Positions 26,570 to 48,841 of a DNA stretch of 64,000 nt are shown here, piece after piece. Under the pieces are notes generated by a model. It did not search any database and had not been told where the DNA came from. It saw only the letters and a list, made by a program, of their open reading frames with translations. This DNA comes from Sphingopyxis sp. DBS4. GTDB lineage: Bacteria > Pseudomonadota > Alphaproteobacteria > Sphingomonadales > Sphingomonadaceae. Position numbers and translations under genes: made by a program. The stretch spans positions 124,001 to 188,000 of the forward strand of contig NZ_CP102386.1 of the NCBI RefSeq assembly GCF_024628865.1. Direction: 5' to 3'. Within the stretch, counting starts at the first letter, position 1. Each line of letters opens with the position of its first letter.

Positions 26570-26911
26570 CTAATCTGAGAATTGATCGAAGGCTTCGACA
26601 GCCTGCGCGGCATACATGAGGCTGGGACCGGCGCCCATGTAGAGGGCCATGCCCATCGTCTCCATGACCTCGTCGCGCGTCGCGCCCTGCTTAACTGCCG
26701 CCTTGGCATGGAAGGCCACGCAGCCGTCGCAGCGGATCGCGACCGAGATGGCGAGCGCGATCAGTTCCTTGGTTTTGGCGTCGAGCGTTCCTGCCTGGGT
26801 TGCCGCCGCCGCCATCGCGGAAAAGGCCTTCATCACTTCGGGTGTGCCGAGCCGCACTTCCTTGATGGCGACGTTCAATTCGTCGGCCATTTTCGGCCAG
26901 TCCTTGTGCAT
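26570..26911 (-). CDS. Carboxymuconolactone decarboxylase-family (AhpD-like) protein
   Basis: 113 residues, the size of small CMD proteins. RCDGCVAFHAKAAVKQGA contains the AhpD-type CXXC (Cys61 and Cys64) and the following histidine (68), the redox pair and proton relay of alkylhydroperoxidase-like members. The C-terminal MGMALYMGAGPSLMYAAQAVEAF is typical. Most likely a thiol-dependent peroxidase or disulfide reductase-like protein rather than a decarboxylase. It is the last gene of the leftward sqr-DUF2892-tolC operon, 21 bases after tolC. Confidence 0.9.
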   Translation of the reverse strand: MHKDWPKMADELNVAIKEVRLGTPEVMKAFSAMAAAATQAGTLDAKTKELIALAISVAIRCDGCVAFHAKAAVKQGATRDEVMETMGMALYMGAGPSLMYAAQAVEAFDQFSD

Positions 26912-26932
26912 GTGTCCCTCTCCTGTTGAAGC

Positions 26933-28198
26933 TCAGCGCCCGATGAGGGCGAGCAGCCGGTAGGCGGCTACGATGCGATCACTTTGCGCCCTGGCCTCGC
27001 TGACGGCGGCCGCAGCTGCCTCCCGCTCCGCGTCGAGCAGGTCGAGCTGGGGTTTCATGCCGACACGGACCTCATGGCGAACGCTGTCGCGGGCCTGGGC
27101 GGCGGCAAGGGCTTGGCTGGCAGCGGCGGTTTCGACCAACATGGCGGACCGCACGCCCTGAAAGACACTGATCGTCTGTTCATCGACTGCGGAGCGCGCC
27201 GCGCGCACGCGGGCGTCGGCCGCTCTTACCGCGCTGTCGGATTCGGTGATTTTAGCCGAGACACGTCCGCCCGAGAACAACTGCCAGCGCGCGCGCACGC
27301 CGACTGTCGCGCCGTCGGCGCGATAATCGGGGAAGAACTGATCGCGGATCGTCGAGCCTTCGGCGAAGGCGCCGACCGTGGGCAGTCGTTCGGCCCGTGC
27401 GCCTCTCGCGCCAGCGCGCGCCGCTTCCAACGCTGCTTCGGCCTGGGCGAGAGCAGGATTGTTAGCCCGGGCGATGTTGAGCGCTTCATCGAGCGATCCC
27501 GGCATGGCCGGGTTCGCCGGGAGAGGCTGCAAATCCTGCGGCGCAAGGCCGGTCAGATTGGTGAACCGCGCATCGGCCGAGACGGCAACGCCCCGCGCCG
27601 CTTCAAGGGCAGCCTGTGCTTCGGCGAGCCGCGCCGCAGCCTGCGCAACATCGGTGCTGGGACTTTCCCCGGCTTTGTAGCGAAGACGGGCCTGGCGCTG
27701 GATCTCCTCCATCTGCCCGACCATCTGTTCGTAGAGCGCGACCATGCGCTGCGTGGTCAGCACATCGCCATAGGCCTGGACCGTTGCGACGATGATCTGG
27801 CTGCGCGTCATGTGTTCGCCCGCGTGCGCGGCCGCACTGCCTGCTTTCGCCTGCGCGACGCCTGCGCTGACCCTGCCGCCCATGAATAGCGGCTGTTCGA
27901 TGGTGAGCTGTGCCGCGCGCGGGGTGACGTTCGCCGCCGGAAGCCCGAAATAGCCCTGCGGATCGAGCCGGCCATAGCCGATCGTTCCACTGAGCGTCGC
28001 GGTGGGAAGACCCTGGCCCCGTGCTTCCTTGATCCGGGCATCGGCGGCATCGGCATCGGCGCGCGCCGCTTCGATCTCGGGCGCATGGGTCATGGCGGCC
28101 GCGATCGCCTCTTCCAGCGTCGTCGCCTGCGCCGGCACGGCGGCGCTCGCGAGCAGGCAGGCCAGCAGGGGCAAGGGGATCGGCGCGGATCGCCTCAT
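26933..28198 (-). CDS. TolC-family outer membrane efflux protein
   Basis: 421 residues from the ATG at 28198; the longer upstream frame is rejected because the signal peptide (MRRSAPIPLPLLACLLASAAVPAQA) starts here and the ATG overlaps the stop of the preceding gene (ATGA). Two OEP repeats follow, each with long alanine-rich helices (for example ALNIARANNPALAQAEAALEAARAG) and beta segments (TIEQPLFMGGRVSAG; VRARWQLFSGGRVSA). It forms the outer membrane channel. Its adaptor and RND permease are encoded on the opposite side of the same divergent promoter region, so one pump is built from two divergent operons. Confidence 0.92.
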   Translation of the reverse strand: MRRSAPIPLPLLACLLASAAVPAQATTLEEAIAAAMTHAPEIEAARADADAADARIKEARGQGLPTATLSGTIGYGRLDPQGYFGLPAANVTPRAAQLTIEQPLFMGGRVSAGVAQAKAGSAAAHAGEHMTRSQIIVATVQAYGDVLTTQRMVALYEQMVGQMEEIQRQARLRYKAGESPSTDVAQAAARLAEAQAALEAARGVAVSADARFTNLTGLAPQDLQPLPANPAMPGSLDEALNIARANNPALAQAEAALEAARAGARGARAERLPTVGAFAEGSTIRDQFFPDYRADGATVGVRARWQLFSGGRVSAKITESDSAVRAADARVRAARSAVDEQTISVFQGVRSAMLVETAAASQALAAAQARDSVRHEVRVGMKPQLDLLDAEREAAAAAVSEARAQSDRIVAAYRLLALIGR

Positions 28199-28398
28199 TT
28201 GAAGGCGGTCCCCGGACGAACGCCCAGCGCTTTGAACACCATCGCGGCGGGGCAGAAGCCGGTGAAGCTCGCCTGGATCATATTGAGACCGGCAAAAACA
28301 GTGAGCGCGAGCCACCAAGGATGCACGGTGAGCGAGAGGACGACGCTCAGCAGCACGACACTTCCGGCGAACGCCATCACGGCACGATCGAGAGTCAT
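28195..28398 (-). CDS. YgaP-type membrane protein (DUF2892)
   Basis: 67 residues from the ATG at 28398, with GAAGGGG upstream. Two transmembrane helices (AVMAFAGSVVLLSVVLSL and WWLALTVFAGLNMIQASF) are followed by GFCPAAMVFKALGV, the DUF2892 signature. In E. coli YgaP this segment is fused behind a rhodanese domain; here the rhodanese is a separate gene on the other side of the promoter. In BigR-type operons a DUF2892 protein accompanies sulfide oxidation genes. The single cysteine in GFCP could handle sulfane sulfur; inference. Confidence 0.88.
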   Translation of the reverse strand: MTLDRAVMAFAGSVVLLSVVLSLTVHPWWLALTVFAGLNMIQASFTGFCPAAMVFKALGVRPGTAFK

Positions 28399-28422
28399 CT
28401 TGTGCACCCCTTCAGTCAAAAA

Positions 28423-29700
28423 TCAGAAACGCAGCTTGCGGATACCCATCGCGTGCATGGCCAGCTTTTCGTAGAAAGGCTCGCTCTCGCCCTTGCGGAT
28501 CTTGCGCAGGAAATATTTCTCGAAGCCGATCTTGGCCAAATGGACCCATTTGCCTTCCGACGCCCAGTTGACGTTGCGCGGTGGGAGCTGGGGTTGGGCG
28601 ACGAAGGCTACGCCGCTATCGCCGAAATCGGCGAGGCAGACCGCGTTCCATGTCGCTTCGGCGGTCGGCGCCTTGCCTTCAAGGATCGACGCGAGATTGG
28701 CTGCGATCGCTGTAACCATGCTCTCGATCATGAAGCCGGTCTTGGGCACGCCCACGGGTACCGGGGTCGGGCCCGTGGGCGGGATCGCGACACACACACC
28801 GAGTGCGAAAATTTCCGGGAAGGCAGGATTGCGCTGGTGCTTGTCGACGATGATGAAGCCGCGCGGGTTGGTGAGGCCTTCGATGTCGCGGACAGCGGGA
28901 ACGCCGCGAAAAGCGGGCAGCATCATCGAATAGGCAAAGGGTAGATCGTGCGTTTTCGTGACCGCGCCGTCCTCGCCCACTTCTTCCACATGCATCAGGC
29001 CTGGTTCGACCCTGGTCACGCGCGCATTGGTAATCCATTTGATATGGCGCTCGCGCATCTCGCTCTCGAGCAGCGACTTGGTGTCGCCAACGCCGTCGAG
29101 ACCGAGATGGCCGATATAGGGCTCGGGCGTCACATAGATCATCGGCACCTTGTCGCGGATCTTGCGGCGGCGCAGTTCGGTGTCGAGGATCATCGTGAAT
29201 TCGTAAGCCGGGCCGTAGCAGGACGCGCCCTGGACTGCGCCGACGATGATGGGACCGGGATTTTCCACGAAGGCGTCGAAGGCATCGGCCGCCTCGGCGG
29301 CATGGGCCGTCTGGCAGACCGAGACGGTATGGCCTTGCGGACCCAGGCCCTCGATCTCGTCGAATGCCAGATCGGGTCCAGTCGCAATTACAAGATAATC
29401 GTAATTGATTGATGTTCCGTCATTGAGTTCGAGTCGCTTTTCGCTCGCATGGACCCGCTTGGCGCCCACTGAGGTGAAGCCGATCTTCTTTTTCGCGAAC
29501 ACCGGGGGGAGATGGACCTGAATCGCTTCCGGCTCGCGCCAACGCACGGCGACCCACGGATTGGAAGGAATGAAGCTGTATGTATCAGTATCGGATACAG
29601 TCATCACTTCGGCGCGGCCCTTTACGGCGTCCTTGATCTCGTAGGAGGCGATGGTGCCTCCCAGTCCCGCACCCAACACAACGATCAACGGCTTGCCCAT
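28423..29700 (-). CDS. sqr: Sulfide:quinone oxidoreductase
   Basis: 425 residues. The N-terminal FAD-binding loop is VVLGAGLGG (8-15). Three cysteines, at 129, 161 and 355, match in spacing the Cys128, Cys160 and Cys356 of the Acidithiobacillus ferrooxidans enzyme, two of which form the redox-active pair bridged by sulfur. The C-terminal region (ASEGKWVHLAKIGFEKYFLRKIR) is the amphipathic membrane-attachment region of SQR. It oxidises sulfide to sulfane sulfur and passes electrons to quinone. It is the first gene of the leftward operon with DUF2892, tolC and the CMD protein, and it faces the rhodanese/RND operon. Confidence 0.92.
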   Translation of the reverse strand: MGKPLIVVLGAGLGGTIASYEIKDAVKGRAEVMTVSDTDTYSFIPSNPWVAVRWREPEAIQVHLPPVFAKKKIGFTSVGAKRVHASEKRLELNDGTSINYDYLVIATGPDLAFDEIEGLGPQGHTVSVCQTAHAAEAADAFDAFVENPGPIIVGAVQGASCYGPAYEFTMILDTELRRRKIRDKVPMIYVTPEPYIGHLGLDGVGDTKSLLESEMRERHIKWITNARVTRVEPGLMHVEEVGEDGAVTKTHDLPFAYSMMLPAFRGVPAVRDIEGLTNPRGFIIVDKHQRNPAFPEIFALGVCVAIPPTGPTPVPVGVPKTGFMIESMVTAIAANLASILEGKAPTAEATWNAVCLADFGDSGVAFVAQPQLPPRNVNWASEGKWVHLAKIGFEKYFLRKIRKGESEPFYEKLAMHAMGIRKLRF

Positions 29701-29733
29701 CTGCGATCCTTCCTGTCTCGACGCCGTTGACTA

Positions 29734-29755
29734 ATATAATCATTACACGTTATAT
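29734..29755. promoter_or_regulatory. Divergent operator candidate between sqr and rhodanese
   Basis: In the 82-base gap between the divergent operons lies ATATAAtcattacacgTTATAT, six-base arms with a 10-base spacer, in a strongly AT-rich context. ArsR-family sulfide sensors (BigR, SqrR) bind AT-rich imperfect palindromes at such positions. The sensor encoded at 34411 is the likely binder (inference). Confidence 0.5.
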
Positions 29756-29782
29756 ACAACCCACAAACTGAAAGGGGTTCTC

Positions 29783-30121
29783 ATGTTCGGATTCAAGAAA
29801 CGTGACGCGCACCGCGAGATCGGCCCCGCCGAGCTCGACGCCATGCTGAAGGACGGCAAGGCGCTGCTGATCGATGTGCGCGAAGTCGATGAGTTCAGGT
29901 CGGGGCATATTCCCGGCGCAATAAACCTGCCGCTGTCGGGCTTTTCACCTCGTAATATCCCTGATCCCGAGGGTCGGACCGTCGTGCTGCAATGCGCGGG
30001 CGGCAAGCGTTCGGGCAAGGCGCTCGACCAATGCGCGGCGGCGCAGAGCGTGATCGACACCCACCTCGCCGGCGGCATCGGCGCATGGAAGGATGCCGGA
30101 ATGCCGGTGGTCGGCGGCTGA
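29783..30121 (+). CDS. Rhodanese-domain sulfurtransferase
   Basis: 112 residues, a single rhodanese domain. LLIDVREVDEFRSGHIPGAINLPL is the family signature and the active loop CAGGKRS begins with the catalytic Cys71. It would carry sulfane sulfur from the SQR product to an acceptor such as glutathione or thioredoxin. It is the first gene of the rightward operon, followed 25 bases later by the RND adaptor. Confidence 0.92.
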   Translation: MFGFKKRDAHREIGPAELDAMLKDGKALLIDVREVDEFRSGHIPGAINLPLSGFSPRNIPDPEGRTVVLQCAGGKRSGKALDQCAAAQSVIDTHLAGGIGAWKDAGMPVVGG

Positions 30122-30146
30122 GAGCAGGTCAAAAGGGGTGAGCAGG

Positions 30147-31199
30147 ATGAGCAAGTGGCTCTGGTTGGCGGGCGCTGCGCTGGCGTTATCGGGATGCGGA
30201 AGTCAGCCGGAGCGCGATTCTGCGGCGGCGACGCTGCCCGCCGGGGACAGCCTGCGGCTCACCGTGACCGAAATCCCCGCCATGAAGGCGGTCGGCGCGG
30301 AAATCGCCACGCGCGACCAGGCCGAAGTGCTCGCGCGCATTCCCGGCATCCTGACCTCCCTGTCGGTTACCGAGGGCGACATGGTGCAGAAGGGTCAGCG
30401 GATCGGCATGATCGTCGACTCGCGGACTGGCTATGAGACCAGCGCCTATGGCGCGCAGGTCGCCGCGGCAGAGGCCGAAGCCGCGCGCGCCAATGCGGAC
30501 CTCGCGCGTATCCGCGATCTCTACAATAACGGCGTCTATGCGCAGGCACGGCTTGATCAGGCCGTGGCCGGCGCGCGCGCGGCCGACGCGCAGGTTGCCG
30601 CCGCCCGTGCCCAGCAGGGCGCGAGCGCAAGCGTTGCCGGGCAAGGCGCAGTGATCGCACCGGCAAGCGGGCGCGTGCTGCGGGCCGACATCCCGGCGGG
30701 CGCGCCGGTTGCGCCGGGCATGTCGATCGCGACCGTCACGGCTGGTCCCCCGGTCCTGCGCCTGATGTTGCCGGAATCGGTCGCAGGGCAGGTCCACCCC
30801 GGCGCGCGCGTGACAATCACAAGCGATGATATTTCCAACGGGTCCCGCGTGGGGCAGGTGACGCAAATCTATCCCGCGATCACCGGAGGCCAGGTTCGCG
30901 TTGACGCGACGCTGCCTGGCCTCACTACCCAATTCGTCGGCCGTCGCGTGAGCACATCGGTCGAGATCGGCACGCGCATGGCGCTGGTCGTGCCGCGCTC
31001 GTTCGTCACCACACGCTACGGCATGGATCAGGTTCAGATCGTAAGCGTTGAAACAAGAGGTGGGGGCAAGCGCCTCAGCATGGTGCCGGTGCAGATCGCA
31101 CCGACAGCCGATCCCGCCAAGGTCGAGATCCTGAGCGGTGTGTCCGCCGGCGACACGCTGTTCGCGCCCCGCACGCCCGCCAAGGTTACCGGCCAATGA
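30147..31199 (+). CDS. RND efflux periplasmic adaptor (lipoprotein)
   Basis: 350 residues from the ATG at 30147, after AAAGGGGTGAGC. The signal peptide ends in a lipobox (LALSGCGS), so the mature protein is anchored to the membrane by lipid. It has the barrel-sandwich half-motifs (EVLARIPGILTSLSVTEGDMVQKGQ; GAVIAPASGRVLRADIPAGAPV), a helical hairpin between them (alanine-rich, about 110-170), and the membrane-proximal region with DTLFAPRTP. It links the RND permease to TolC. The stop overlaps the permease start by four bases. Confidence 0.92.
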   Translation: MSKWLWLAGAALALSGCGSQPERDSAAATLPAGDSLRLTVTEIPAMKAVGAEIATRDQAEVLARIPGILTSLSVTEGDMVQKGQRIGMIVDSRTGYETSAYGAQVAAAEAEAARANADLARIRDLYNNGVYAQARLDQAVAGARAADAQVAAARAQQGASASVAGQGAVIAPASGRVLRADIPAGAPVAPGMSIATVTAGPPVLRLMLPESVAGQVHPGARVTITSDDISNGSRVGQVTQIYPAITGGQVRVDATLPGLTTQFVGRRVSTSVEIGTRMALVVPRSFVTTRYGMDQVQIVSVETRGGGKRLSMVPVQIAPTADPAKVEILSGVSAGDTLFAPRTPAKVTGQ

Positions 31200-34100
31200 A
31201 CCTCGGCATTTCCGGTCGCCTCACCAAGGCCACCATTGCCTCGCCCCTGACGCCGCTGTTCCTGCTCGCGGCGATCGCCGTCGGCCTGCTGGCCCTCTTC
31301 GCGATTCCCCGCGAGGAGGAGCCACAGATCAGCGTGCCGATGGTGGATATTCAGGTCATGGCGCCCGGCCTTTCCGCCGCCGACGCGACCGAGCTGGTCG
31401 GCATCCCTCTCGAAACCATCGTCAAGAGCGTCGACGGCGTGGAGCACGTCTACACCCAGGCACAGGACAACGGGGTGATGGTGACGGCGCGCTTCCTCGT
31501 CGGGTCGAATCCCGAGGACGCCGCTATCCGTATCGAGGAAAAGCTGCGCGCCAATTGGGACAGGAAGCCGGTCGGCATTCCCGATCCCATGGTGACGGTG
31601 CGCGGCATCAACGATGTCCCCACGGTCGTCCTGACTCTCACACCCAAGCCAGGAGCGGCGGGCCAGTGGAACGATGCCAGCCTCTACGAGCTGGCCTCAA
31701 AGCTGCGCACCGAGATCGCCAAGGTCGATGATGTCGGCATCACCTTCCTCGTTGGCGGACGCCCCGAGGAAATCCGTATCGCGCCGGACCCCGCGAAGCT
31801 GCGCCAATATGGCGTGCCGCTGGGCAGCGTGATCGAGGCCGCAAGCCAGGCCAACCGCAGCTTCCCGCTGGGCAATATCCGCGAGGATGGAAAGGCCGTC
31901 GGCGTGACCGCGGGCCGCACCTTGTCTTCGGCACAGGAAGTGGGACTATTGACGGTCCGGTCGGGCACCGGGTCGCCCGTCTATCTTCGCGACGTCGCGG
32001 CCGTCACACAGGGGCCGCGCGAGGAACAGGCCCGCGCATGGCGCTGGGCAAAGTCGGACAATGGGGCGGAGAACGGCAAGTGGGATAGCGCGCCTGCCGT
32101 CAGCATCGCGTTCGCCAAGCGTGCCGGGGCCAATGCCGTGGTCGTCTCCGATGCCATTCTTGAGCGCGTGGAAAGCCTGAAAGGCAAGCTGATCCCCGAT
32201 GACGTCACGGTCGCCGTGACGCGCAACTATGGCGAGACGGCGAACGAAAAGGCGAACGAGTTGCTGTTCCACCTCGCGCTGGCGACCGTCTCGATCGTCG
32301 TGCTGATCGGCTTCGCGATCGGTTGGCGCGAGGCCGGCGTGACCGCCGTGGTCATCCCGACGACGATCCTGCTGACCATGTTCGCGTCGAACCTCATGGG
32401 CTACACGATCAACCGCGTCAGCCTGTTCGCGCTGATCTTCTCCATCGGCATCCTCGTGGACGACGCGATCGTCATGATCGAGAACATCGCCCGCCATTGG
32501 GCCATGGATGATGAACGGACGCGCACGCAGGCCGCGATCGAGGCTGTGGCCGAGGTCGGCAATCCGACCGTCGTCGCCACGCTCACCGTGGTCGCCGCGC
32601 TGCTCCCCATGCTGTTCGTCTCCGGCCTGATGGGGCCGTATATGGCGCCGATCCCGGTCAACGCATCGGCGGCGATGATCTTTTCCTTCTTCGTCGCGGT
32701 CGTGATCGCGCCGTGGCTGATGATCCGCTTCGCGCGCAAGACGCTGGCGGCGGGGCATGGCCATGACGAAAGCGGCGGCAAGCTCGGCCAGCTCTATGCG
32801 CGCGTCGCGCATCGCGTGATCGACACGCGCAAGTCGGCCCGAAACTTCCTGATCGGGGTCGGCGTGGCAACGCTGGTCGCCTGCTCGATGTTCTACTTCA
32901 AGGCCGTCACCGTGAAGCTGCTGCCCTTCGACAACAAGTCGGAGGTCCAAGTCGTGGTCGACATGCCCGAAGGGACTGCCCTCGAAAATACGGGCCGCGT
33001 GCTGGAGGATGTAGCCGGTATCGTGCGCGGTCTGCCCGAAGCGACGTCGATGGAGGCCTATGTCGGCACATCGGCGCCGTTCAACTTCAACGGCCTCGTC
33101 CGCCATTATTTTCTGCGCTCGCAGCCCGAACAGGGCGACGTGATGGTGACGCTGCTGCCCAAGGGCGACCGCGACCGTTCCAGCCACGAAATCGCGCTCG
33201 ATCTGCGTGAGCGGCTGAAGGCGCTCACGCTGCCGGGCGGTGCGTCGCTCAAGGTTGTCGAGACGCCGCCGGGACCACCGGTGCTCGCGACACTGCTGGC
33301 CGAAGTCTATGGTCCGGATGCCGCAACCCGGCAGAAGACGGCTGTGGAGCTTGAGAAGATCTTCCGATCCGTCCCCTTCATCGTCGACGTCGACAACAGC
33401 TTCGGCGCGGCTCGGCCCAAGCTCCGCCTCGACCTGCAGCGCGACCGGCTTGATTATTATGGTCTGTCACAGCGGCAAGTCGCCGACGGCATCGGGATGC
33501 TGATGGGCAGCCAGACGGTTGGCTATGCGCCTCGCGGCGATGGCCGAACGCCACTCCCGATCACGATCGCACTTGAGCAGAAGGACCGGAGCTGGACGCA
33601 GGCCCTGTCGAGCACGCCCATCGGACAGACGCCGGGTGGCCAGCTCATCGACCTCGGCGCCGTGGTGGAAGCCCGCACCGAGACGGGCAGCCCGGCAATC
33701 TTCCGTCGCGACGGCCGCTATGCCGACATGGTGACGGCCGAGCTTGCCGGAGCCTATGAGGCGCCGATCTACGGCATGATCGAAGTCAATCGCGCGGTCG
33801 ATGCCTATGACTGGGCCGCCAAGGGGCTGACGAAACCGGAAATCCTCCTCAACGGTCAGCCCGAGGATGAGAGCGTGTCGTCCGTGCTGTGGGACGGTGA
33901 ATGGGAGATCACCTGGGTCACGTTCCGCGACATGGGCGGGGCCTTCATGGTGGCCCTGCTGGGGATCTATATTCTCGTCGTCGCGCAGTTCAGGAGCTTC
34001 CGCCTGCCGCTGGTCATCCTGACGCCGGTGCCGCTGACCCTCGTTGGTATCGTCATCGGGCACATGCTGTTCCGCGCGCCGTTCACGGCGACGTCGATGA

Positions 34101-34414
34101 TCGGGTTCATCGCGCTGGCCGGGATCATCGTGCGCAATTCGATCCTGCTGGTCGATTTCATCAGGCATGCGGCTTCGCCCGACAAATCCCTGCGCGACGT
34201 GCTGCTGGAAGCCGGCACGATCCGGTTCAAGCCGATTGTCCTCACGGCGGCTGCGGCGATGATCGGCGCGGCGGTGATCTTGACCGATCCGATCTTCCAG
34301 GGCCTGGCGATTTCGTTGCTGTTCGGCCTTGCGTCCTCGACGCTGCTGACCGTGCTGGTTATTCCGGCCATTTACATTGTGCTCCGAGATGACGGGAAGC
34401 CTGCGACCAGATGA
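31196..34414 (+). CDS. RND-family inner membrane efflux permease
   Basis: 1072 residues, the usual length. TM1 region LTPLFLLAAIAVGLLALFAIPREEEPQISVP is the family start. The two TM4 aspartates of the proton relay are in GILVDDAIVMIENIARH (about 420). Large periplasmic loops follow TM1 and TM7, and the C-terminal half has FMVALLGIYILVVAQF and GIIVRNSILLVDFIRHA. Its sequence is of the AcrB/hydrophobe type rather than the CzcA heavy-metal type, judged by the TM4 motif. Substrate unknown; its position between a rhodanese and a sulfide sensor suggests export of a sulfur-derived or related toxic compound. Confidence 0.92.
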   Translation: MNLGISGRLTKATIASPLTPLFLLAAIAVGLLALFAIPREEEPQISVPMVDIQVMAPGLSAADATELVGIPLETIVKSVDGVEHVYTQAQDNGVMVTARFLVGSNPEDAAIRIEEKLRANWDRKPVGIPDPMVTVRGINDVPTVVLTLTPKPGAAGQWNDASLYELASKLRTEIAKVDDVGITFLVGGRPEEIRIAPDPAKLRQYGVPLGSVIEAASQANRSFPLGNIREDGKAVGVTAGRTLSSAQEVGLLTVRSGTGSPVYLRDVAAVTQGPREEQARAWRWAKSDNGAENGKWDSAPAVSIAFAKRAGANAVVVSDAILERVESLKGKLIPDDVTVAVTRNYGETANEKANELLFHLALATVSIVVLIGFAIGWREAGVTAVVIPTTILLTMFASNLMGYTINRVSLFALIFSIGILVDDAIVMIENIARHWAMDDERTRTQAAIEAVAEVGNPTVVATLTVVAALLPMLFVSGLMGPYMAPIPVNASAAMIFSFFVAVVIAPWLMIRFARKTLAAGHGHDESGGKLGQLYARVAHRVIDTRKSARNFLIGVGVATLVACSMFYFKAVTVKLLPFDNKSEVQVVVDMPEGTALENTGRVLEDVAGIVRGLPEATSMEAYVGTSAPFNFNGLVRHYFLRSQPEQGDVMVTLLPKGDRDRSSHEIALDLRERLKALTLPGGASLKVVETPPGPPVLATLLAEVYGPDAATRQKTAVELEKIFRSVPFIVDVDNSFGAARPKLRLDLQRDRLDYYGLSQRQVADGIGMLMGSQTVGYAPRGDGRTPLPITIALEQKDRSWTQALSSTPIGQTPGGQLIDLGAVVEARTETGSPAIFRRDGRYADMVTAELAGAYEAPIYGMIEVNRAVDAYDWAAKGLTKPEILLNGQPEDESVSSVLWDGEWEITWVTFRDMGGAFMVALLGIYILVVAQFRSFRLPLVILTPVPLTLVGIVIGHMLFRAPFTATSMIGFIALAGIIVRNSILLVDFIRHAASPDKSLRDVLLEAGTIRFKPIVLTAAAAMIGAAVILTDPIFQGLAISLLFGLASSTLLTVLVIPAIYIVLRDDGKPATR

Positions 34415-34746
34415 TGCCCCTCGATACGCCTCTTGCTGCCCCCTTTGCCGAACTCGCCAGGCATGCCGCCCATGCAGCGAGCGTGTTGAAGCTGCTCGCC
34501 AATGAACAGCGCCTGCTGATCCTTTGCCGGCTGACCCAGGGTGAGTTCTCGGTGAACGCCATGGTGGAACTGTGCGGTCAGTCGCAGTCCAGCGTATCGC
34601 AACATCTCGGCAAGCTGCGCGAAGGTGGGCTGGTCAAGACCCGGCGCGAGGCCACGACCATCTACTACAGCCTGGCCGACGATGGCGTTCGCCAGTTGAT
34701 CGACATGCTGTGCGATCGTTTCGGGCCATCCGGTGAAGGCTCCTGA
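34411..34746 (+). CDS. ArsR-family repressor of the BigR/SqrR persulfide-sensor type
   Basis: 111 residues. The winged helix is plain: ASVLKLLANEQRLLILCRLTQGEFSVNAMVELCGQSQSSVSQHLGKLREGGLVKTRREATTIYYSL. Cysteines lie at 39 (LILCRL, second helix), 55 and 101 (DMLCDRF, last helix). Positions 39 and 101 correspond to the Cys pair (about 41/42 and 107/108) that forms a tetrasulfide bridge in SqrR and BigR in response to sulfane sulfur. It overlaps the RND permease gene by four bases, so it is in the same operon and likely controls the divergent promoter at 29701-29782. Confidence 0.88.
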   Translation: MMPLDTPLAAPFAELARHAAHAASVLKLLANEQRLLILCRLTQGEFSVNAMVELCGQSQSSVSQHLGKLREGGLVKTRREATTIYYSLADDGVRQLIDMLCDRFGPSGEGS

Positions 34747-34750
34747 ACCC

Positions 34751-35365
34751 ATGATCGCCCGCGCTTCCTTACCGTTTCTGGCCGTGCTGTTGCTCGGAGC
34801 CTGCGCGTCGGACAAGGCCGCCCCGGATCAGGGCATGATGGTCAGGGAAGCGCAGGCCCGTTCCGAGGTCCTGGCTGACCGCTTCCAGAAGGAGTTGCTG
34901 AGCGCCCTCACCACCGCGATGGCGACTGAAGGGCCGCAGGGGGCGATCGGCGTCTGTTCGAGCATCGCCCCGGCGCTCGCGGCGCAACTCTCGGAGGAAA
35001 GCGGTGCGAGCGTCAGGCGCACGGCGCTGCGCGCCCGCAATCGGGCAGCAAAGGCCGACGCAACCGAGCAGCGCGTCATGGAAGGCTGGGCGAACGCACC
35101 GCTGGGCGAGGACGGCAAGCCTCGGCGCTGGACGGCGCATGAAGGCGATCAATATCGCTATATGCGCGCCATCCCCACCATGCCGATGTGCCTTGCCTGT
35201 CATGGCGAGAATATCGCGCCCGAAGTGACGGCGGCGATCCGCGCGAATTATCCCGGGGATCAGGCGACGGGCTTTGCGCCGGGCCAGCTTCGCGGGGCCT
35301 TCTCGATTCGCTGGGATGAGGCGGCCTTGTCCCGCGCGATCCGGAAAGGAGAAACGGCCCAATGA
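34751..35365 (+). CDS. DUF3365 lipoprotein with c-type heme motif
   Basis: 204 residues from the ATG at 34751. Signal peptide with lipobox LLGAC (Cys18). MCLACHGE near the C-terminus supplies CXXCH (Cys147, Cys150, His151), the covalent heme site of the DUF3365/Tll0287 family. The fold of that family resembles sensory PAS domains with bound heme. Here it is a free lipoprotein, not fused to a kinase. It could sense or transfer electrons to a redox-active small molecule. The following gene overlaps its stop by four bases. Confidence 0.82.
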   Translation: MIARASLPFLAVLLLGACASDKAAPDQGMMVREAQARSEVLADRFQKELLSALTTAMATEGPQGAIGVCSSIAPALAAQLSEESGASVRRTALRARNRAAKADATEQRVMEGWANAPLGEDGKPRRWTAHEGDQYRYMRAIPTMPMCLACHGENIAPEVTAAIRANYPGDQATGFAPGQLRGAFSIRWDEAALSRAIRKGETAQ

Positions 35366-36126: not shown

Positions 36127-36171
36127 TCGCGCGGTCCGGCGTCAGCAACCGGCAGTCAGCGAGGAGCTATT

Positions 36172-36597
36172 TCACCCGCGCCCACGACCACCGCCGCGCT
36201 CGCGTTCGAGGCATCGCCTGAAGGCGGGTAGGTGACGTTCGCGCGAGGCGGCTTGCAGATTTTCCATCACCTGGCGCGCCGCCGGATCGTCGATCATCGG
36301 AATCAGCCGGTCATAAAGGGCGATGTTCTCGATCTCGCCCTGGACCGCGCTTTCGCAGGCCTGTGCGAGCGCGGCTGGCGCCGTCACTTTCCCGGCCCAC
36401 GGGTTGGGCGGCACATCAATTCCCAATCGTGCGAGCTGGCGTTCGAGCGCCGCAGCGTGACGCTGTTCGGCCTCGATGATGTTGGAGAAGGGCCGGACCG
36501 GGCCGAACCTGTCGATCACCGCCGCATAGGTCGCCTCAGCCTTGCGCTCATCGTCGAGCGCATCGAGCAGGATCTTCGTCAGCTCTGCCGTGGCCAT
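36172..36597 (-). CDS. Ferritin-like four-helix protein
   Basis: 141 residues from the ATG at 36597, after AAGGAGAAGACC. The helices carry the acidic and histidine residues of a diiron site: DDERKAEATYAAV, EAEQRHAAALERQL (EXXH), GEIENIALYDRL and SRERHLPAFRR (EXXH-like). Length and pattern agree with the small ferritin-like (DUF2202-type) family. Iron storage or peroxide handling is likely. It lies 22 bases after the TlpA-like gene and may be the last gene of the leftward cyd operon. Confidence 0.75.
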   Translation of the reverse strand: MATAELTKILLDALDDERKAEATYAAVIDRFGPVRPFSNIIEAEQRHAAALERQLARLGIDVPPNPWAGKVTAPAALAQACESAVQGEIENIALYDRLIPMIDDPAARQVMENLQAASRERHLPAFRRCLERERGGGRGRG

Positions 36598-36619
36598 GGT
36601 CTTCTCCTTGATCAAAATT

Positions 36620-37408
36620 CTATTCCAGACCCCGTAATCCCGCGAGTAGGGCGGCACGCGAGATCTCGCCGACATGCAGCACGCGGATGACGCCCTTGCT
36701 ATCAACGAACAGCGTGGCGGGGAGACCCGCAGATCCGATCGCCGCCGCCGCGTTCTGGTTTGGGTCCAGATGGACGTCTGTCGATCCAAGGTGCTTGCCG
36801 TCCAGCCATGCGCGCACCTTCGCCGCGTCCTCGCCCTGGTTGACAAGCAGGATCGGCACGGGCGAGCGCGCCGCTTCTGTAACCATCATCGGCATTTCAC
36901 GCTGGCACGGCGGACACCACGTCGCCCAGAGATTGATGACAAACGGCTTGCCCATGCGATCGTCGAGGGAGCTTGTTCCGCCATCGAGCGACTGGAGAAC
37001 GACGCCTTGCGGCAGAGGTCGCTGCGCCGAGGCAAGGAACAATGCGGTGGCAGCGAGGGCAGCCCCGGCGCAGCCCATGAACGCAAGTCCCAGAGGCGGC
37101 AGCGCCCGCGATCGTCGTAACGATATGACCAGCACGATCGCGGCGGACACAAGGCCGATCAGTGGCGAGAAACCTCCTTGCCAGACGTAGAGGATGCTCA
37201 GGGGTTCGACCGCGAAAGCGGGCCAGTTCTGTGCTACGAAGCCCAGGCGCGCCGCGACGAGGCCGACGAGCAGCGCGCGCCATGCGGCCTTATCGCTGTC
37301 CGGGCCATGGCGACGGCCGATCCAGTTCGCCGTCGCCATGAAGACGACGATCCCAAGGACCGCGAACAGCCGCTCCAACGCAAGCGCCAGGGGACCGACG
37401 CTAATCAC
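36620..37408 (-). CDS. Membrane-anchored TlpA-like thiol:disulfide reductase
   Basis: 262 residues in two parts. Residues 1-130 contain four hydrophobic segments reminiscent of prolipoprotein diacylglyceryl transferase-like membrane domains. Residues 135-262 are a thioredoxin fold of the TlpA/ResA kind with WCPPC at 164-168 and the cis-proline region GLPATLFVDSKG. It probably keeps periplasmic thiols reduced, for example for cytochrome maturation or the CydDC-exported pool. It sits directly downstream of cydX, 11 bases away. Confidence 0.88.
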   Translation of the reverse strand: MISVGPLALALERLFAVLGIVVFMATANWIGRRHGPDSDKAAWRALLVGLVAARLGFVAQNWPAFAVEPLSILYVWQGGFSPLIGLVSAAIVLVISLRRSRALPPLGLAFMGCAGAALAATALFLASAQRPLPQGVVLQSLDGGTSSLDDRMGKPFVINLWATWCPPCQREMPMMVTEAARSPVPILLVNQGEDAAKVRAWLDGKHLGSTDVHLDPNQNAAAAIGSAGLPATLFVDSKGVIRVLHVGEISRAALLAGLRGLE

Positions 37409-37419
37409 CAGATCGCCCT

Positions 37420-37530: not shown

Positions 37531-37544
37531 CGAAGTCGTTCCTT

Positions 37545-38693: not shown

Positions 38694-38705
38694 GACCTGT
38701 TCTCC

Positions 38706-40292: not shown

Positions 40293-40365
40293 GGCAAGAC
40301 TCCTTGCATTCCGGCCCGGCTTTGCATGGTCGCCATGAGTCGGTTGAAAAGATTATGGTTAGCCA

Positions 40366-40375
40366 TTACGCGTAA
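40366..40375. promoter_or_regulatory. Palindrome in the cydA-cydD divergent promoter
   Basis: TTACGCGTAA within the 91-base gap between cydA and cydD, close in wording to the ATTACACGTTA found in the sqr/rhodanese promoter. Candidate shared operator half. Confidence 0.3.
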
Positions 40376-40383
40376 GCGAGTAT

Positions 40384-43571: not shown

Positions 43572-43614
43572 CGACGCGGGCGTGCTTATCATCGAAGCGT
43601 CGTCAAAGGCGCGA

Positions 43615-43989
43615 TCACAAGATCCTGGCGAAGGTCGCGGCCGATCCCCGTGCGCGCGCATGCGTGTTCCTGGTTCCAGGTGGCGTTGCTTGAGACGAAA
43701 TGCCCGACAGAGCGCAGAGCAGCGTCGCGGTGCTTTTCAGGGTCTCCGGCGCCAGGCTGTAGAAGACGAGCTTGGCTTCGCGGCGCGTCTGCACCAGCTC
43801 GGCCTTGCGCAGGATGCCAAGCTGCTGCGACAGCCCCGGTTGGCCGATGCCGGTCATGGCTTCGAGTTCACCGACCGATTTCTCGCCATTCTCGAGCAGC
43901 GTCCGCATGAGCTTCAGCCGCACCTCATGCGCGAGCGCCTTGAGAATGTCGGTGATCGCATCGAGTTCGGTGTCGGTGAAGGTCGTCAC
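43615..43989 (-). CDS. ArsR-family transcriptional regulator
   Basis: 124 residues with a GTG start at 43989 that overlaps the stop of the upstream peroxiredoxin gene. Winged-helix core: ILKALAHEVRLKLMRTLLENGEKSVGELEAMTGIGQPGLSQQLGILRKAELVQTRREAKLVFYSL. Only one cysteine (LLCALSG, near 92) follows the core, so it lacks the second-helix cysteine of the other sensor at 34411. It may respond to a different signal. The C-terminus is basic and likely disordered. It ends 43 bases from the cydC stop, converging with it. Confidence 0.9.
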   Translation of the reverse strand: MTTFTDTELDAITDILKALAHEVRLKLMRTLLENGEKSVGELEAMTGIGQPGLSQQLGILRKAELVQTRREAKLVFYSLAPETLKSTATLLCALSGISSQATPPGTRNTHARARGSAATFARIL

Positions 43990-44651
43990 TTGCCTGCCTC
44001 TTTGTGCTTGTCGGGCCGTGTCCGGTGGAACCAGCAGGCGTCGCCTGCCGCATCGAGCGCGGAGTCTTGATCCTGATAGGGTGGAAGCAGCACGTCATCG
44101 CCGGGGCGCCAGCCTTCGGGCGTGACCACATTGTCGCTGTCGACCCTTTGCAGCGCGGCGACGACGCGCAGCAGCTCCTCCACTGATCGGCCGATAGTGG
44201 CCGGGTAGCAGAGCTTGGCGCGGATGATGCCGTCGGGGTCGATGAAGAAGGTCGCGCGCAGCGTGGCGGAGTCAGGCGCATCGTCCGCGATCATCCCGTA
44301 AGCGTGGCCGATGACCATCGAGGGATCTTCGACGATCGGAAAACCGACCGTGACACCGAAATGCTCATGGATCGCCCGTATCCATCCGAGGTGCGAATAG
44401 AGGCTGTCGACCGAGATCGCGACCAGAGCGCAATTCAGCGCCTTGAACCGCTCTCCGGCGCGTGAGAGCGCGACGAATTCACTGGTGCAGACCGGCGTGA
44501 AGTCCGCGGGATGCGAGAACAGCAACACCCATCGGCCACGATAATCTGACAGGCTCATTTCGCCCATGGTCGTGCGCGCCTGGAAATTGGGTGCGGCATC
44601 GCCGATCTGGACCGGCGAACACACGCCACTCTCATTTGCGCTGGGATTCAA
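43986..44651 (-). CDS. 1-Cys peroxiredoxin (Prx6 type)
   Basis: 221 residues with a TTG start at 44651, preceded by AGGAG. HPADFTPVCTSEF has the peroxidatic Cys55. The second half (GFPIVEDPSMVIGHAYGMI; TLRATFFIDPDGIIRAKLCYP) is characteristic of the Prx6 group. It reduces hydroperoxides. A second member of the same group is at 45414; this one has a unique C-terminal extension (CWFHRTRPDKHKEAGK). Operon with the ArsR regulator downstream. Confidence 0.9.
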   Translation of the reverse strand: MNPSANESGVCSPVQIGDAAPNFQARTTMGEMSLSDYRGRWVLLFSHPADFTPVCTSEFVALSRAGERFKALNCALVAISVDSLYSHLGWIRAIHEHFGVTVGFPIVEDPSMVIGHAYGMIADDAPDSATLRATFFIDPDGIIRAKLCYPATIGRSVEELLRVVAALQRVDSDNVVTPEGWRPGDDVLLPPYQDQDSALDAAGDACWFHRTRPDKHKEAGK

Positions 44652-44760
44652 ATTTCCTACTCCTGAAGGGAGGCGAGTCTTGAACCGGCTTTTTTACACG
44701 GTTACATCATGCGGGTAAACGATTAAGCAGTGCTTGCGGTTTCACAGGAGGGCCATCCGC

Positions 44761-45204
44761 ATGTCTGATTCCCAGCTGGTGGTTTGCCCGGTTTGCGCGA
44801 GCATCAACCGGGTTCCCGGTGCGAAGATCGGTGCTGCGCCCAATTGTGGACGATGCTCGATGCCGTTGTTCCAGGGCCAGCCTGTCGATGTCGATCAGGC
44901 GGCATTCGACCGTCACATCGGGCGCGGAAGCCTGCCTGTGCTCGTCGATTTCTGGGCGAGTTGGTGCGGGCCGTGCCGCGCCATGGCGCCGGCGTTCAAG
45001 GCCGCTGCCGCCGATCTGGAGCCGCATGTCCGGTTGCTGAAGGTCGACACCGAGGCCGAGCAGGGCATAGCCGGGCGTTACCGCATCCAGTCGATCCCGA
45101 CGCTGATACTCTTCAAGGGCGGCCGAGAGGTCGCGCGGCAGGCCGGCGCTATGGACCGCGGGCGACTCGTCGCATGGGTCAGGCAGACTCTTGCCAGCGC
45201 CTGA
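44761..45204 (+). CDS. trxC: Thioredoxin 2 (TrxC type, zinc-binding)
   Basis: 147 residues from the ATG at 44761. An N-terminal zinc finger (CPVC at 9-12, CGRC at 29-32) distinguishes TrxC from Trx1, and FWASWCGPCRAMAP gives the active site at 69-72. It reduces disulfides and likely persulfides or polysulfides. It is divergent from the first peroxiredoxin gene and upstream of the second. Confidence 0.93.
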   Translation: MSDSQLVVCPVCASINRVPGAKIGAAPNCGRCSMPLFQGQPVDVDQAAFDRHIGRGSLPVLVDFWASWCGPCRAMAPAFKAAAADLEPHVRLLKVDTEAEQGIAGRYRIQSIPTLILFKGGREVARQAGAMDRGRLVAWVRQTLASA

Positions 45205-45342
45205 TTCGGGTCTCTATCACCCCTACACTTAGCCTAAATGATGCTTTGTGGCGTTTGTACGCCCGCTCTGGCGCGCCGCGAATCCGGCCTTAGCCGCCAA
45301 ATTTGGAAAAGATTGAAAAATCCGGTCAGAGGTATTAAGTTT

Positions 45343-45358
45343 ATCGTGTTTTCACGAT
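45343..45358. promoter_or_regulatory. Inverted repeat upstream of the second peroxiredoxin
   Basis: ATCGTGttttCACGAT, 56 bases before the ATG at 45414, within an AT-rich 209-base gap. Candidate operator for the ArsR-type or a peroxide-responsive regulator. Confidence 0.45.
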
Positions 45359-45413
45359 TAAATGAATTATGTATTCAATGTCTGTCAGATACTCAGGTAC
45401 AGGAGACGATAAA

Positions 45414-46058
45414 ATGACAGATCAGGCCACCCCCTCCATGCCCCGGATCAACGAACCGGCGCCCGCCTTCAAGGCCAAAACCACCCACGGCGAACGCTCG
45501 CTCGACGATTACAAGGGCAAGTGGCTCGTCCTCTTTTCCCACCCCGCGGACTTCACCCCGGTCTGTACGACCGAGTTCATGGGCTTCGCCAAGGCGGCGG
45601 ACCGTTTCAAGGCGCTCAACTGCGAACTGCTGGGCCTCTCCATCGACTCCGTGCATTCGCACATCGCCTGGATGCGCAGTATCGAGGAGAAGTTCGGGGT
45701 CGAGATCCCGTTTCCGATCATCGACGACCTGTCGATGATCGTCGCGAAGGCCTTCGGCATGATCCATCCCGGCGCCTCGGACACCTCGGCGGTTCGGGCC
45801 ACTTTCATCATCGATCCCGAGGGCATCATCCGCGCGATGGTCTACTACCCGATGTCGAACGGCCGTTCGGTCGATGAATTCGTCCGCCTGCTCACCGCGC
45901 TTCAGACGTCCGATGCCAACAAGATCGCGACGCCTGAAAACTGGCAGCCCGGTGAGCCGGTGATCGTGCCACCGCCTGCCACGGCTGAAGCCGCCAAGGC
46001 CCGCAAGGACGAGGGCTACGATTACACCGACTGGTACTTCAGCAAGAAGGCACTCTGA
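45414..46058 (+). CDS. 1-Cys peroxiredoxin (Prx6 type)
   Basis: 214 residues from the ATG at 45414, after AGGAGACGATAAA. HPADFTPVCTTEF has the peroxidatic Cys51. The family ending (ATPENWQPGEPVIVPPP, DWYFSKK) is present. Cytosolic. First gene of a likely operon with the MBL-fold protein and TauE/SafE exporter, so peroxide or polysulfide removal would be coupled to sulfane sulfur oxidation. Confidence 0.93.
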   Translation: MTDQATPSMPRINEPAPAFKAKTTHGERSLDDYKGKWLVLFSHPADFTPVCTTEFMGFAKAADRFKALNCELLGLSIDSVHSHIAWMRSIEEKFGVEIPFPIIDDLSMIVAKAFGMIHPGASDTSAVRATFIIDPEGIIRAMVYYPMSNGRSVDEFVRLLTALQTSDANKIATPENWQPGEPVIVPPPATAEAAKARKDEGYDYTDWYFSKKAL

Positions 46059-46141
46059 GCCGGTCGGGCCGGCTCCGCGCAGCACCTCTCCCCCTGAGCG
46101 CGGAGCCGGCACACCCGGTTATCGAATGAAAGGACAAGACC

Positions 46142-47062
46142 ATGGCCGACCCGCAAATCCGTGAAGCCACCCGCATCGTCGAGGCCGCGAGCAATGCGCG
46201 GCCCGCGGTCATTCGCAGTTTCTTCGACGAGGACACGTTCACCGTGACCCACGTCATCTCCGATCCCGCGACCGCCAGGGCCGCGATCATCGACAGCGTG
46301 CTCGACTTCGACCCGGCATCGGGGCGCACTTCCTTCGCGTCGGCCGACAAGGTGATCGACTATATCCAGAGCGAAGGCCTGGAGGTCGAATGGCTGCTCG
46401 AAACGCACGCCCATGCGGACCATCTCTCGGCCGCGCCCTATCTGCAGGAAAAGCTGGGTGGGACGCTGGCGATCGGTCGCCATATCCTCACGGTGCAGGA
46501 GGTGTTCGGCAAGATCTTCAATGAGGGCACGCGCTTCGCCCGCGACGGCTCGCAGTTCGACCGCCTGTTCGATGACGGCGACCGCTTCCAGGTCGGGTCG
46601 ATCGAGGCGATCGCGCTGCATGTTCCGGGCCACACACCAGCCGACATGGCCTATGTGATCGGCGACGCGGCCTTCATCGGCGACACGCTGTTCATGCCTG
46701 ACTATGGCACCGCGCGCGCCGATTTTCCCGGCGGTGATGCGCGCACCCTCTATCGGTCCATCCGGCGCCTGCTCTCGCTGCCCGATCAGACGGGCGTGTA
46801 TCTCTGCCACGATTACAAGGCCCCTGGGCGCGACACTTATGCCTGGGAGACGTCGGTGGGCGAGGAGCGCGAACATAACGTCCATGTGCGCGACGGGGTG
46901 AGCGAGGACCAGTTTGTCGCCATGCGCGAGGCGCGCGACGCGACGCTCGACATGCCCCGGCTGATCCTGCCGTCGATTCAGGTCAACATGCGCGGCGGCC
47001 ATATGCCGGAGCCGGAGAGCAACGGCACCAGCTATCTGAAGCTCCCGGTTAACACGCTGTAA
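46142..47062 (+). CDS. blh: Persulfide dioxygenase-like MBL-fold protein (Blh/ETHE1 group)
   Basis: 306 residues. The metal ligands are in order: THAHADH (89-94), LHVPGHTPADM, FIGDTLFMPDYG and YLCHDYKAPGR. The spacing and the one-iron pattern match bacterial persulfide dioxygenases and the Blh protein of BigR operons, which oxidise glutathione persulfide to sulfite. The N-terminal RSFFDEDTFTVTHVISDP is typical of the Blh subgroup. The next gene, an exporter of the TauE/SafE family, starts four bases after the stop and could remove the sulfite. Confidence 0.9.
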   Translation: MADPQIREATRIVEAASNARPAVIRSFFDEDTFTVTHVISDPATARAAIIDSVLDFDPASGRTSFASADKVIDYIQSEGLEVEWLLETHAHADHLSAAPYLQEKLGGTLAIGRHILTVQEVFGKIFNEGTRFARDGSQFDRLFDDGDRFQVGSIEAIALHVPGHTPADMAYVIGDAAFIGDTLFMPDYGTARADFPGGDARTLYRSIRRLLSLPDQTGVYLCHDYKAPGRDTYAWETSVGEEREHNVHVRDGVSEDQFVAMREARDATLDMPRLILPSIQVNMRGGHMPEPESNGTSYLKLPVNTL

Positions 47063-47066
47063 GGCC

Positions 47067-47861
47067 ATGACGCTCGAACCCATCCAATATCTGCTGGGGG
47101 CCGGATCGGGTTCGCTCGTCGGCTTCACCCTGGGTCTCGTGGGCGGCGGCGGGTCAATCCTCGCCGTCCCCCTCATGGTCTATCTGGTCGGTGTTGCCTC
47201 GCCTCATGTCGCTATAGGGACCAGCGCACTCGCGGTCGCCGTCAATGCCGGCGCGAACCTCGTCCCCCATGCCCGCCAGCGCACGATCAAATGGCGCTGC
47301 GCGGGCATGTTCGCGGCCGCAGGCGTCGTGGGCGCCTATGCCGGGTCGACGCTCGGCAAGGCGTTTGACGGGCAGAAGCTGCTCTTCCTGTTCGCGCTGC
47401 TGATGATCCTCGTCGGCGCGCTGATGTTGAAAAGCCGCGGCGATCCCGGCAATCCCGATGTCCAGTGCGAGCGCGAGAACGCGCCCAAGGTGATCGGCTA
47501 TGGCGGCGCGACGGGTCTGTTCTCGGGTTTCTTTGGCATCGGCGGCGGTTTCCTGATCGTGCCCGGGCTTATGGCCTCGACAGGGATGCCGATGCGCAAT
47601 GCGGTCGGCTCGTCGCTGGTTGCCGTCACCGCCTTCGGCCTCACGGCCGCGCTCAACTACGCCTTTTCCGGCCTGGTCGATTGGCTGCTTGCCGCGACGT
47701 TCATCGGCGGCGGCGTGATCGGCGGCCTTGTCGGTGCCGCGCTCTCGCAACGGCTCTCTGCCCACAAGGGTGCGCTCAACACGATCTTCGCCCTGCTGAT
47801 CTTCGTGGTCGCCGCCTATATGCTGTGGCAGAGCGCATCCGCCATCTTGCACGGAATTTGA
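47067..47861 (+). CDS. TauE/SafE-family sulfite exporter-like protein
   Basis: 264 residues with eight or so hydrophobic segments in two repeats, each with the glycine-rich family motif (GFTLGLVGGGGSILAVPLMVY; GLFSGFFGIGGGFLIVPGLM). Members export sulfite or organosulfonates. Directly downstream of the dioxygenase gene, as in the BigR operons of Agrobacterium and Xylella. Confidence 0.93.
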   Translation: MTLEPIQYLLGAGSGSLVGFTLGLVGGGGSILAVPLMVYLVGVASPHVAIGTSALAVAVNAGANLVPHARQRTIKWRCAGMFAAAGVVGAYAGSTLGKAFDGQKLLFLFALLMILVGALMLKSRGDPGNPDVQCERENAPKVIGYGGATGLFSGFFGIGGGFLIVPGLMASTGMPMRNAVGSSLVAVTAFGLTAALNYAFSGLVDWLLAATFIGGGVIGGLVGAALSQRLSAHKGALNTIFALLIFVVAAYMLWQSASAILHGI

Positions 47862-48816: not shown

Positions 48817-48841
48817 TGCCCGGCTGGCCGAAGCCGGGCGC

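What the first reader, a model, noticed from the sequence alone, without database searches (positions are those of the whole stretch)
26570..47861. Sulfide/persulfide resistance island joining SQR, an RND pump, cytochrome bd and peroxiredoxins
Seen: sqr, DUF2892, tolC and a CMD protein on one strand; rhodanese, RND adaptor, RND permease, a BigR/SqrR-like sensor, a heme lipoprotein and a secreted protein divergently; then TlpA-like, cydXBA, cydDC, ArsR, two Prx, TrxC, a Blh-like dioxygenase and TauE/SafE. Known: BigR operons hold sensor, DUF2892, Blh and TauE/SafE; cytochrome bd tolerates sulfide. Inferred: here the set is extended with a dedicated RND pump whose tolC is split into the sqr operon, forming one stress module that removes, exports and tolerates reactive sulfur. 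I do not know of a described system with this composition.
Basis: partly seen in the sequence, partly recalled or inferred. Interest (0 to 1): 0.8.

Follow-up and report, generated by a model that had tools for sequence, protein, structure and literature searches.

The report
Sulfide-detox genes with own efflux pump
A plasmid in a soil-type bacterium carries a sulfide-removing enzyme and a three-part efflux pump that seem to share one sulfur-sensing switch, and the same pairing recurs in many distant bacteria, which points to a pump family devoted to sulfur stress whose cargo is still unknown.

Summary
The genes are present at the stated coordinates. The core is a divergent operon pair, sqr-DUF2892-tolC-CMD and rhodanese-MFP-RND permease-ArsR-haem lipoprotein-secreted protein, sharing an 82-bp gap. 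The pump-sulfide link is not chance: in 20 alphaproteobacterial loci at 57-67% permease identity, SQR/DUF2892/rhodanese/ArsR lie nearby in 10/15/5/16; around 20 other RND permeases in 0/0/0/0. The linked permeases form one supported clade apart from those controls. An operator matrix learned from relatives, without the window, has its best site in the 64 kb inside the sqr/rhodanese gap; a pattern form matches nowhere else in the 4.9-Mb genome. The cyd/Prx/PDO half travels with the core on plasmids but lacks that operator here, so "one stress module" is only partly supported. It is partly in print: an H2S-induced SQR-RND operon in Azospira suillum (PMC5358917), and RND pumps near sulfane-sulfur ArsRs (PMC12423496). 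Added here: a controlled survey defining a sulfur-linked RND clade and its operator. Substrate unproven; sulfane-sulfur export is my leading guess.

The parts
26570..26911 (-). CMD/AhpD-like protein, end of sqr operon
   Evidence: PF02627
26933..28198 (-). TolC-family outer membrane channel
   Evidence: PF02321, TIGR01844 over cut-off
28195..28419 (-). DUF2892 / YgaP-like membrane protein (start may lie at 28398, as annotated on pISP1)
   Evidence: PF11127; its Cys is kept in 86 of 86
28423..29700 (-). sulfide:quinone oxidoreductase (SQR)
   Evidence: 3sz0, 468 bits; Cys columns 129, 161, 355 kept in 63, 64, 63 of 66
29730..29757 (.). predicted operator in the 82-bp sqr/rhodanese gap
   Evidence: best matrix site of the 64-kb window, 19.4 bits, window not in training; only genome match of the pattern form
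29783..30121 (+). single-domain rhodanese
   Evidence: PF00581; Cys71 in 46 of 47
30147..31199 (+). RND periplasmic adaptor (MFP)
   Evidence: TIGR01730 over cut-off
31196..34414 (+). RND permease, 1072 aa, sulfur-linked clade
   Evidence: PF00873; tree
34411..34746 (+). ArsR-type repressor of the SqrR/BigR/HlyU kind
34733..35365 (+). Tll0287-like (DUF3365) haem lipoprotein
   Evidence: PF11845
35362..36126 (+). secreted protein of unknown family, beta-sandwich model
   Evidence: no Pfam
36172..36675 (-). ferritin-like DUF2202 protein (island, not core)
   Evidence: PF09968 25 bits
36620..37408 (-). Lgt-like/TlpA fusion (island, not core)
   Evidence: PF01790, PF00578
37420..40292 (-). cydX, cydB, cydA, cytochrome bd (island, not core)
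   Evidence: TIGR02106, TIGR00203, PF01654
40384..43571 (+). cydD and cydC-like ABC exporter (island, not core)
   Evidence: PF00005; annotation on pISP1
43615..44651 (-). second ArsR (no alpha2 Cys) and peroxiredoxin (island, not core)
44761..46058 (+). TrxC and second peroxiredoxin (island, not core)
46142..47861 (+). stand-alone persulfide-dioxygenase-type MBL protein and TauE/SafE (island, not core)

Best explanation
A sulfide/sulfane-sulfur stress unit with its own tripartite RND pump. At rest the SqrR-type ArsR binds the palindrome between sqr and rhodanese and silences both operons (inferred). When sulfide enters, SQR oxidises it at the membrane to polysulfide or persulfide (known for the enzyme family). 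Sulfane sulfur bridges the two ArsR cysteines and releases it from DNA (known for SqrR; inferred here). Rhodanese and the one-cysteine DUF2892 membrane protein pass sulfane sulfur on, and MFP-permease-TolC drives surplus sulfane sulfur (polysulfide, S8 or thiol persulfide) out of membrane and periplasm (inferred). The bd oxidase, peroxiredoxins, PDO and TauE travel with it as a plasmid island but appear separately controlled here. Shown: gene content, linkage across genomes, one permease clade, operator position. Inferred: DNA binding, induction, substrate. 'Pump for sulfur stress, co-controlled with sqr' I hold at about 0.85; 'substrate is sulfane sulfur' at about 0.45; the figure below is for the whole chain.
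For: SQR/DUF2892/rhodanese/ArsR beside the permease: A 53/70/41/70 of 80, B 10/15/5/16 of 20, C 2/13/7/7 of 20, D 6/4/4/5 of 8, control RNDs 0/0/0/0 of 20. Permease clade. Genome co-occurrence with this SQR type: both in 7 of 189 genomes, permease 17, SQR 9, p = 4e-7. Operator: dyad in 48 of 67 junctions, at most 10 in shuffles; window site; loci with a site over 14 bits A 70 of 80 (trained on), B 18 of 20, C 15 of 20, D 7 of 8, controls 1 of 20. Four Paracoccus sites before PDO, ArsR, DUF2892-MFP-permease and SQR. 100 of 108 nearby ArsRs have the alpha2 Cys and one at column 101 or 105. An SQR-RND operon is H2S-induced and a Bar-seq hit in Azospira (PMC5358917).
Against: Nothing shows what the pump carries. 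10 of 17 permease genomes lack this SQR type. No SQR/DUF2892/rhodanese/ArsR within 8 kb in 3 of 58 (A), 2 of 20 (B), 7 of 19 (C), 2 of 8 (D) full-flank loci. Deleting the Azospira operon left the H2S oxidation rate unchanged, and its authors prefer metal-sulfide export; its homology was not tested. The window ArsR fails the BigR cut-off, and its second Cys is one turn off the usual place. In AT-rich C and D loci matrix hits include sites away from promoters.
Confidence: 0.5

Rival explanations
1. The pump is part of the sulfide response but exports metal sulfides or metal-thiol complexes, as the Azospira authors propose for H2S-induced RND pumps.
For: PMC5358917 section 10 and discussion passage.
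Against: The permease scores better with the multidrug-type model (412 bits) than with the CusA/CzcA heavy-metal model (254 bits), both below cut-off. The four steady neighbours are sulfur genes; I did not search the loci for metal-resistance genes.
Confidence: 0.2
2. The pump is an ordinary exporter of organic toxicants or of damaged lipids or quinones, put under a sulfane-sulfur sensor because that signal marks a stress in which it helps.
For: RND pumps of the multidrug type are commonly put under stress sensors (recalled). Papers on MarR-type repressors of efflux genes sensing sulfane sulfur appear in the listing (titles and abstract starts only).
Against: The tie to DUF2892, rhodanese and SQR holds to 35-46% permease identity and the permeases form their own clade, which fits a fixed task better.
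Confidence: 0.22
3. The whole 21 kb is one co-regulated sulfide-resistance module, bd oxidase and peroxiredoxins included.
For: Both halves lie together on pISP1 and pIBU218; the operator precedes cydA in L036 and L049 and PDO in L040, L044, L195, L196 and L198; Sphingobium L024 also has cydB/cydA beyond the pump.
Against: No operator at the cyd, Prx, TrxC or PDO gaps in the window; Prx2 has a different dyad, also in pIBU218; low co-occurrence in relatives; the pattern form matches only once in the genome.
Confidence: 0.15
4. The genes are chance neighbours on a plasmid.
For: The region is plasmid-borne beside a tyrosine recombinase.
Against: Neighbour survey with controls, clade, co-occurrence and operator.
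Confidence: 0.01

Closest known systems
Azospira suillum PS operon Dsui_3440-3443 (PMC5358917; abstract, passages and section 10 read)
   Same: RND efflux pump, SQR and RND MFP in one operon with an unknown gene; highly expressed under H2S and a Bar-seq hit; a DUF2892 gene elsewhere is also about 10-fold up.
   Different: No rhodanese, ArsR or TolC named in the operon; order differs; the authors read the pump as metal-sulfide export; sequence homology of the permease not tested here.
Sulfane-sulfur ArsR neighbourhoods (PMC12423496; passages and section 2.1 read)
   Same: States that such regulators lie near sqr, pdo, rhodanese, TauE and RND efflux pump genes.
   Different: Names RND pumps only as a class in the text I read; no clade, operator or control in that section; supplements were not available.
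bigR operon with Blh (PMC5823870; abstract start in the listing only)
   Same: BigR-type repressor, sulfur dioxygenase, and by recall DUF2892 and TauE/SafE.
   Different: Here there is a pump and SQR, and the dioxygenase has no sulfurtransferase part.
E. coli YgaVP and R. capsulatus SqrR regulon (PMC9774250, PMC9995734; passages)
   Same: SqrR-type ArsR controlling a rhodanese and, in R. capsulatus, sqr.
   Different: In YgaP rhodanese and membrane segment are fused (recalled); here they are separate genes on divergent operons, joined to SQR and an RND pump. The ATTC-N8-GAAT consensus given for SqrR is not at this promoter.
Solved RND permeases (TriC-like 6vej and other multidrug pumps)
   Same: AcrB/AcrD/AcrF family fold by sequence (PF00873).
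   Different: Best solved match only 207 bits for 1072 aa; no NCBIfam subfamily reaches its cut-off.

Membership tests
SqrR/BigR-type persulfide-sensing ArsR | Cys pair in alpha2 and alpha5 | tested here: met
   C39 aligns with the alpha2 Cys (105 of 108 rows); second Cys at column 101, where 37 of 108 have it, while 65 have it at 105. Only ArsR frames over 85 bits were aligned.
SqrR/BigR-type persulfide-sensing ArsR | NCBIfam BigR equivalog cut-off | tested here: not met
   80 bits against 155; so it is not filed as BigR, only as of that kind
SqrR/BigR-type persulfide-sensing ArsR | tetrasulfide formation and release from DNA | not testable with these tools
   needs EMSA and mass spectrometry
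SQR | three catalytic cysteines (recalled from A. ferrooxidans SQR) in an SQR-type flavoprotein | tested here: met
   aligned; columns 129, 161 and 355 are Cys in 63, 64, 63 of 66
RND permease | PF00873 over gathering score | tested here: met
   467 against 28 bits
Named multidrug or heavy-metal RND subfamily | curated NCBIfam cut-off | tested here: not met
   412 of 1250, 254 of 701.45 and others below cut-off
Blh | fused sulfurtransferase and dioxygenase | tested here: not met
   model positions 128-423 only, 400 of 625 bits
One module with cyd/Prx/PDO/TauE | same operator in front of these genes in the window | tested here: not met
   best 5.9, -6.2, 6.8 and -12.3 bits in the cydA/D, Prx1/TrxC, TrxC/Prx2 and Prx2/PDO gaps
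Azospira SQR-RND operon | permease in the same clade | not tested

The most novel reading that the evidence does not exclude
A whole clade of RND pumps, spread through Alphaproteobacteria and into other classes of the phylum, is specialised for expelling sulfane sulfur (polysulfide, S8 or thiol persulfides) made by SQR and rhodaneses, which would make it the first RND group with a sulfur substrate that I know of; in sphingomonads it moves on conjugative plasmids as a ready-made sulfide-resistance island.
Probability: 0.4. Interest if true: 0.78.

Novelty: new variant of a known kind. Interest (0 to 1): 0.55.

Why it matters
Cells that oxidise sulfide must dispose of reactive polysulfides and elemental sulfur, and how these leave the cell is, to my knowledge, not settled. 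A defined RND clade with a shared operator and a homologue in the laboratory organism Paracoccus denitrificans (PDEN_RS23380) makes that question testable. It also warns that pumps annotated as multidrug exporters may serve sulfur metabolism.

Tried and rejected

Limits of the counts. B = 20 of 45 alphaproteobacterial hits at 55-77% identity, chosen by me mainly for contig length (identities 57-67%; two of them, G552 and G567, have an in-frame stop in the permease). C (20) and D (8) were chosen the same way from longer lists. Controls: 20 other RND loci, 9 from this genome, chosen. A and B were not checked for shared species, so B is not fully independent of the matrix. The random-stretch background of the matrix over 14 bits is 1.0% of 400 stretches of 130 bp. 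The tree used every fourth A locus, every second B locus, all C, D and E loci and the window, 79 rows, short search; 11 of the 58 fetched rows in the sulfur-linked clade carry none of the four genes on their locus, among them the subclade L117, L133, L134, L135.
Full report
What is there. Two divergent operons share an 82-bp gap (29701-29782): leftward SQR, DUF2892, TolC, CMD; rightward rhodanese, MFP, RND permease, ArsR, a haem lipoprotein and a secreted protein. Then come a ferritin-like DUF2202 gene and an Lgt-TlpA fusion with cydXBA leftward, cydD and its ABC partner rightward, an ArsR-Prx pair leftward, and TrxC, Prx, an MBL dioxygenase and TauE/SafE rightward. The dioxygenase is not Blh: the sulfurtransferase part is missing.

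Where it is. The window lies on a 227-kb contig. Bases 24300-48200 are 99.8% identical to plasmid pISP1 of Sphingomonas sp. MM-1, typed conjugative. pIBU218 of Rhizorhabdus wittichii, also typed conjugative, covers 89% of that stretch at 86.6% with katG, catalase, Dps, chloride-channel and other genes around or between. In the stretches compared, the two differ outside the island except for a tyrosine recombinase beside it in both, 74% identical. So the island travels, probably as a unit (inference).

Is the pump part of the sulfur system? I asked what lies beside permease relatives. SQR/DUF2892/rhodanese/ArsR: A, the 80 best loci, 53/70/41/70; B, 20 alphaproteobacterial loci at 57-67% identity, 10/15/5/16; C, 20 loci at 41-46%, 2/13/7/7; D, 8 loci at 35-40%, 6/4/4/5; E, 20 loci of other RND permeases, 9 of them from this genome, 0/0/0/0. 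With full flanks and within 8 kb, at least three of the four occur in 47 of 58, 10 of 20, 6 of 19, 4 of 8 and 0 of 17; none of the four in 3 of 58, 2 of 20, 7 of 19, 2 of 8 and 17 of 17. SQR is on the strand opposite the pump in 41 of 45 A loci that have it, but in 0 of 2 C and 0 of 6 D loci, so divergence is an alphaproteobacterial trait in this sample. The permeases of A-D form one side of a 100%-supported long branch, the 20 controls the other; 11 of 58 fetched rows in the clade have none of the four genes.

Genome level. Among 189 class genomes other than this one the permease is in 17, this SQR type in 9, both in 7 (Fisher p = 4e-7). So 10 of 17 permease genomes lack this SQR type; DUF2892 and the ArsR are the steadier partners. 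This genome has one such SQR.

The switch. In 67 junctions (66 loci and the window) the dyad ATAT-N12-ATAT occurs in 48; the commonest dyad in 20 shuffles reached 10. The window's own copy is imperfect (ATAT-N12-TTAT). A 28-bp matrix built from 65 relatives' sites without the window has its best site of the 64 kb at 29730, 19.4 bits; five shuffled windows peaked at 8.0 to 15.6. Loci with a site over 14 bits: A 70 of 80 (trained on), B 18 of 20, C 15 of 20, D 7 of 8, E 1 of 20. A pattern form with one mismatch allowed matches once in the 4.9-Mb genome, at this place. In P. denitrificans, sites of 26.5, 19.7, 25.6 and 19.9 bits stand before PDO-DUF2892-YeeE, ArsR, DUF2892-MFP-permease and SQR, the clearest picture of one regulon; that SQR is only a distant relative of the window's (189 bits). 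Two genus relatives, L195 and L196, have a site before PDO. In the window the cyd, Prx, TrxC and PDO gaps have none; Prx2 has a different dyad, also in pIBU218 and in none of the other Prx loci checked.

The sensor. The pump-operon ArsR is nearest HlyU, NolR and SqrR among solved chains. It has the alpha2 Cys; its alpha5 Cys stands at column 101, one turn before the commoner 105. ArsRs upstream of the pump mostly have 105 (59 of 66), those downstream mostly 101 (30 of 40). Whether both sense sulfane sulfur alike is open. The second ArsR lacks the alpha2 Cys.

Mechanism. SQR keeps its cysteines; rhodanese and DUF2892 keep one each (46 of 47, 86 of 86). The permease reaches no named RND subfamily; nearest solved chain 6vej. 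Export of sulfane sulfur fits the company the pump keeps, but nothing here shows its substrate.

What is known. PMC5358917 (abstract, passages, section 10 in full): in Azospira suillum an operon of an unknown protein, efflux pump, SQR and RND MFP was a Bar-seq hit and highly expressed under H2S; deleting it left the oxidation rate unchanged; the authors suggest metal-sulfide export. PMC12423496 (passages and section 2.1): sulfane-sulfur ArsRs lie near sqr, pdo, rhodanese, TauE and RND pump genes. PMC10509353 (passages and section 4): persulfide-sensing ArsRs co-localise with sulfurtransferases or rhodaneses and sulfur transporters. PMC9774250 and PMC9995734: passages. The association is therefore partly in print; the separate clade, the operator, the controls and the plasmid island I did not find in what I read. 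Verdict: real, well conserved, a new variant of a known kind; the pump's function is open and testable.

Noticed in passing
window 35362-36126; L191; L207; L206; L208: The secreted protein belongs to a family with over 1000 relatives and no Pfam model, with two invariant cysteines C176 and C178 in 36 aligned rows. Away from this island it sits beside SQR and an RND permease in L191 and beside PDO, Prx, ArsR and an SQR-like gene in L207, but with none of these in L206 and L208.
   Followed up: partly
window 34411-34746 and ArsR frames of sets A-D: The alpha5 Cys of the ArsR stands one helical turn earlier in most regulators encoded downstream of the pump than in those encoded upstream.
   Followed up: partly
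window 45343-45358: Perfect dyad ATCGTG-TTTT-CACGAT upstream of the second peroxiredoxin, with a variant at the same place in pIBU218; possibly another regulator's site.
   Followed up: partly
window 24395-25546: Tyrosine recombinase beside the island; a 74% identical stretch also lies beside it on pIBU218.
   Followed up: partly
L117, L133, L134, L135: A subclade of the permease (about 45% identity) with none of the four sulfur genes nearby; it may do something else.
   Followed up: no
G022: L193, L194: One genus relative carries two sqr-pump loci with permeases 94% and 92% identical to the window's.
   Followed up: no
window 54202-55881, 49265-50737, 48152-49132, 16513-20008: SulP-type sulfate permease, HipA-type toxin, SPFH/slipin protein, and plasmid ParA/RepA genes in the same window.
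   Followed up: no
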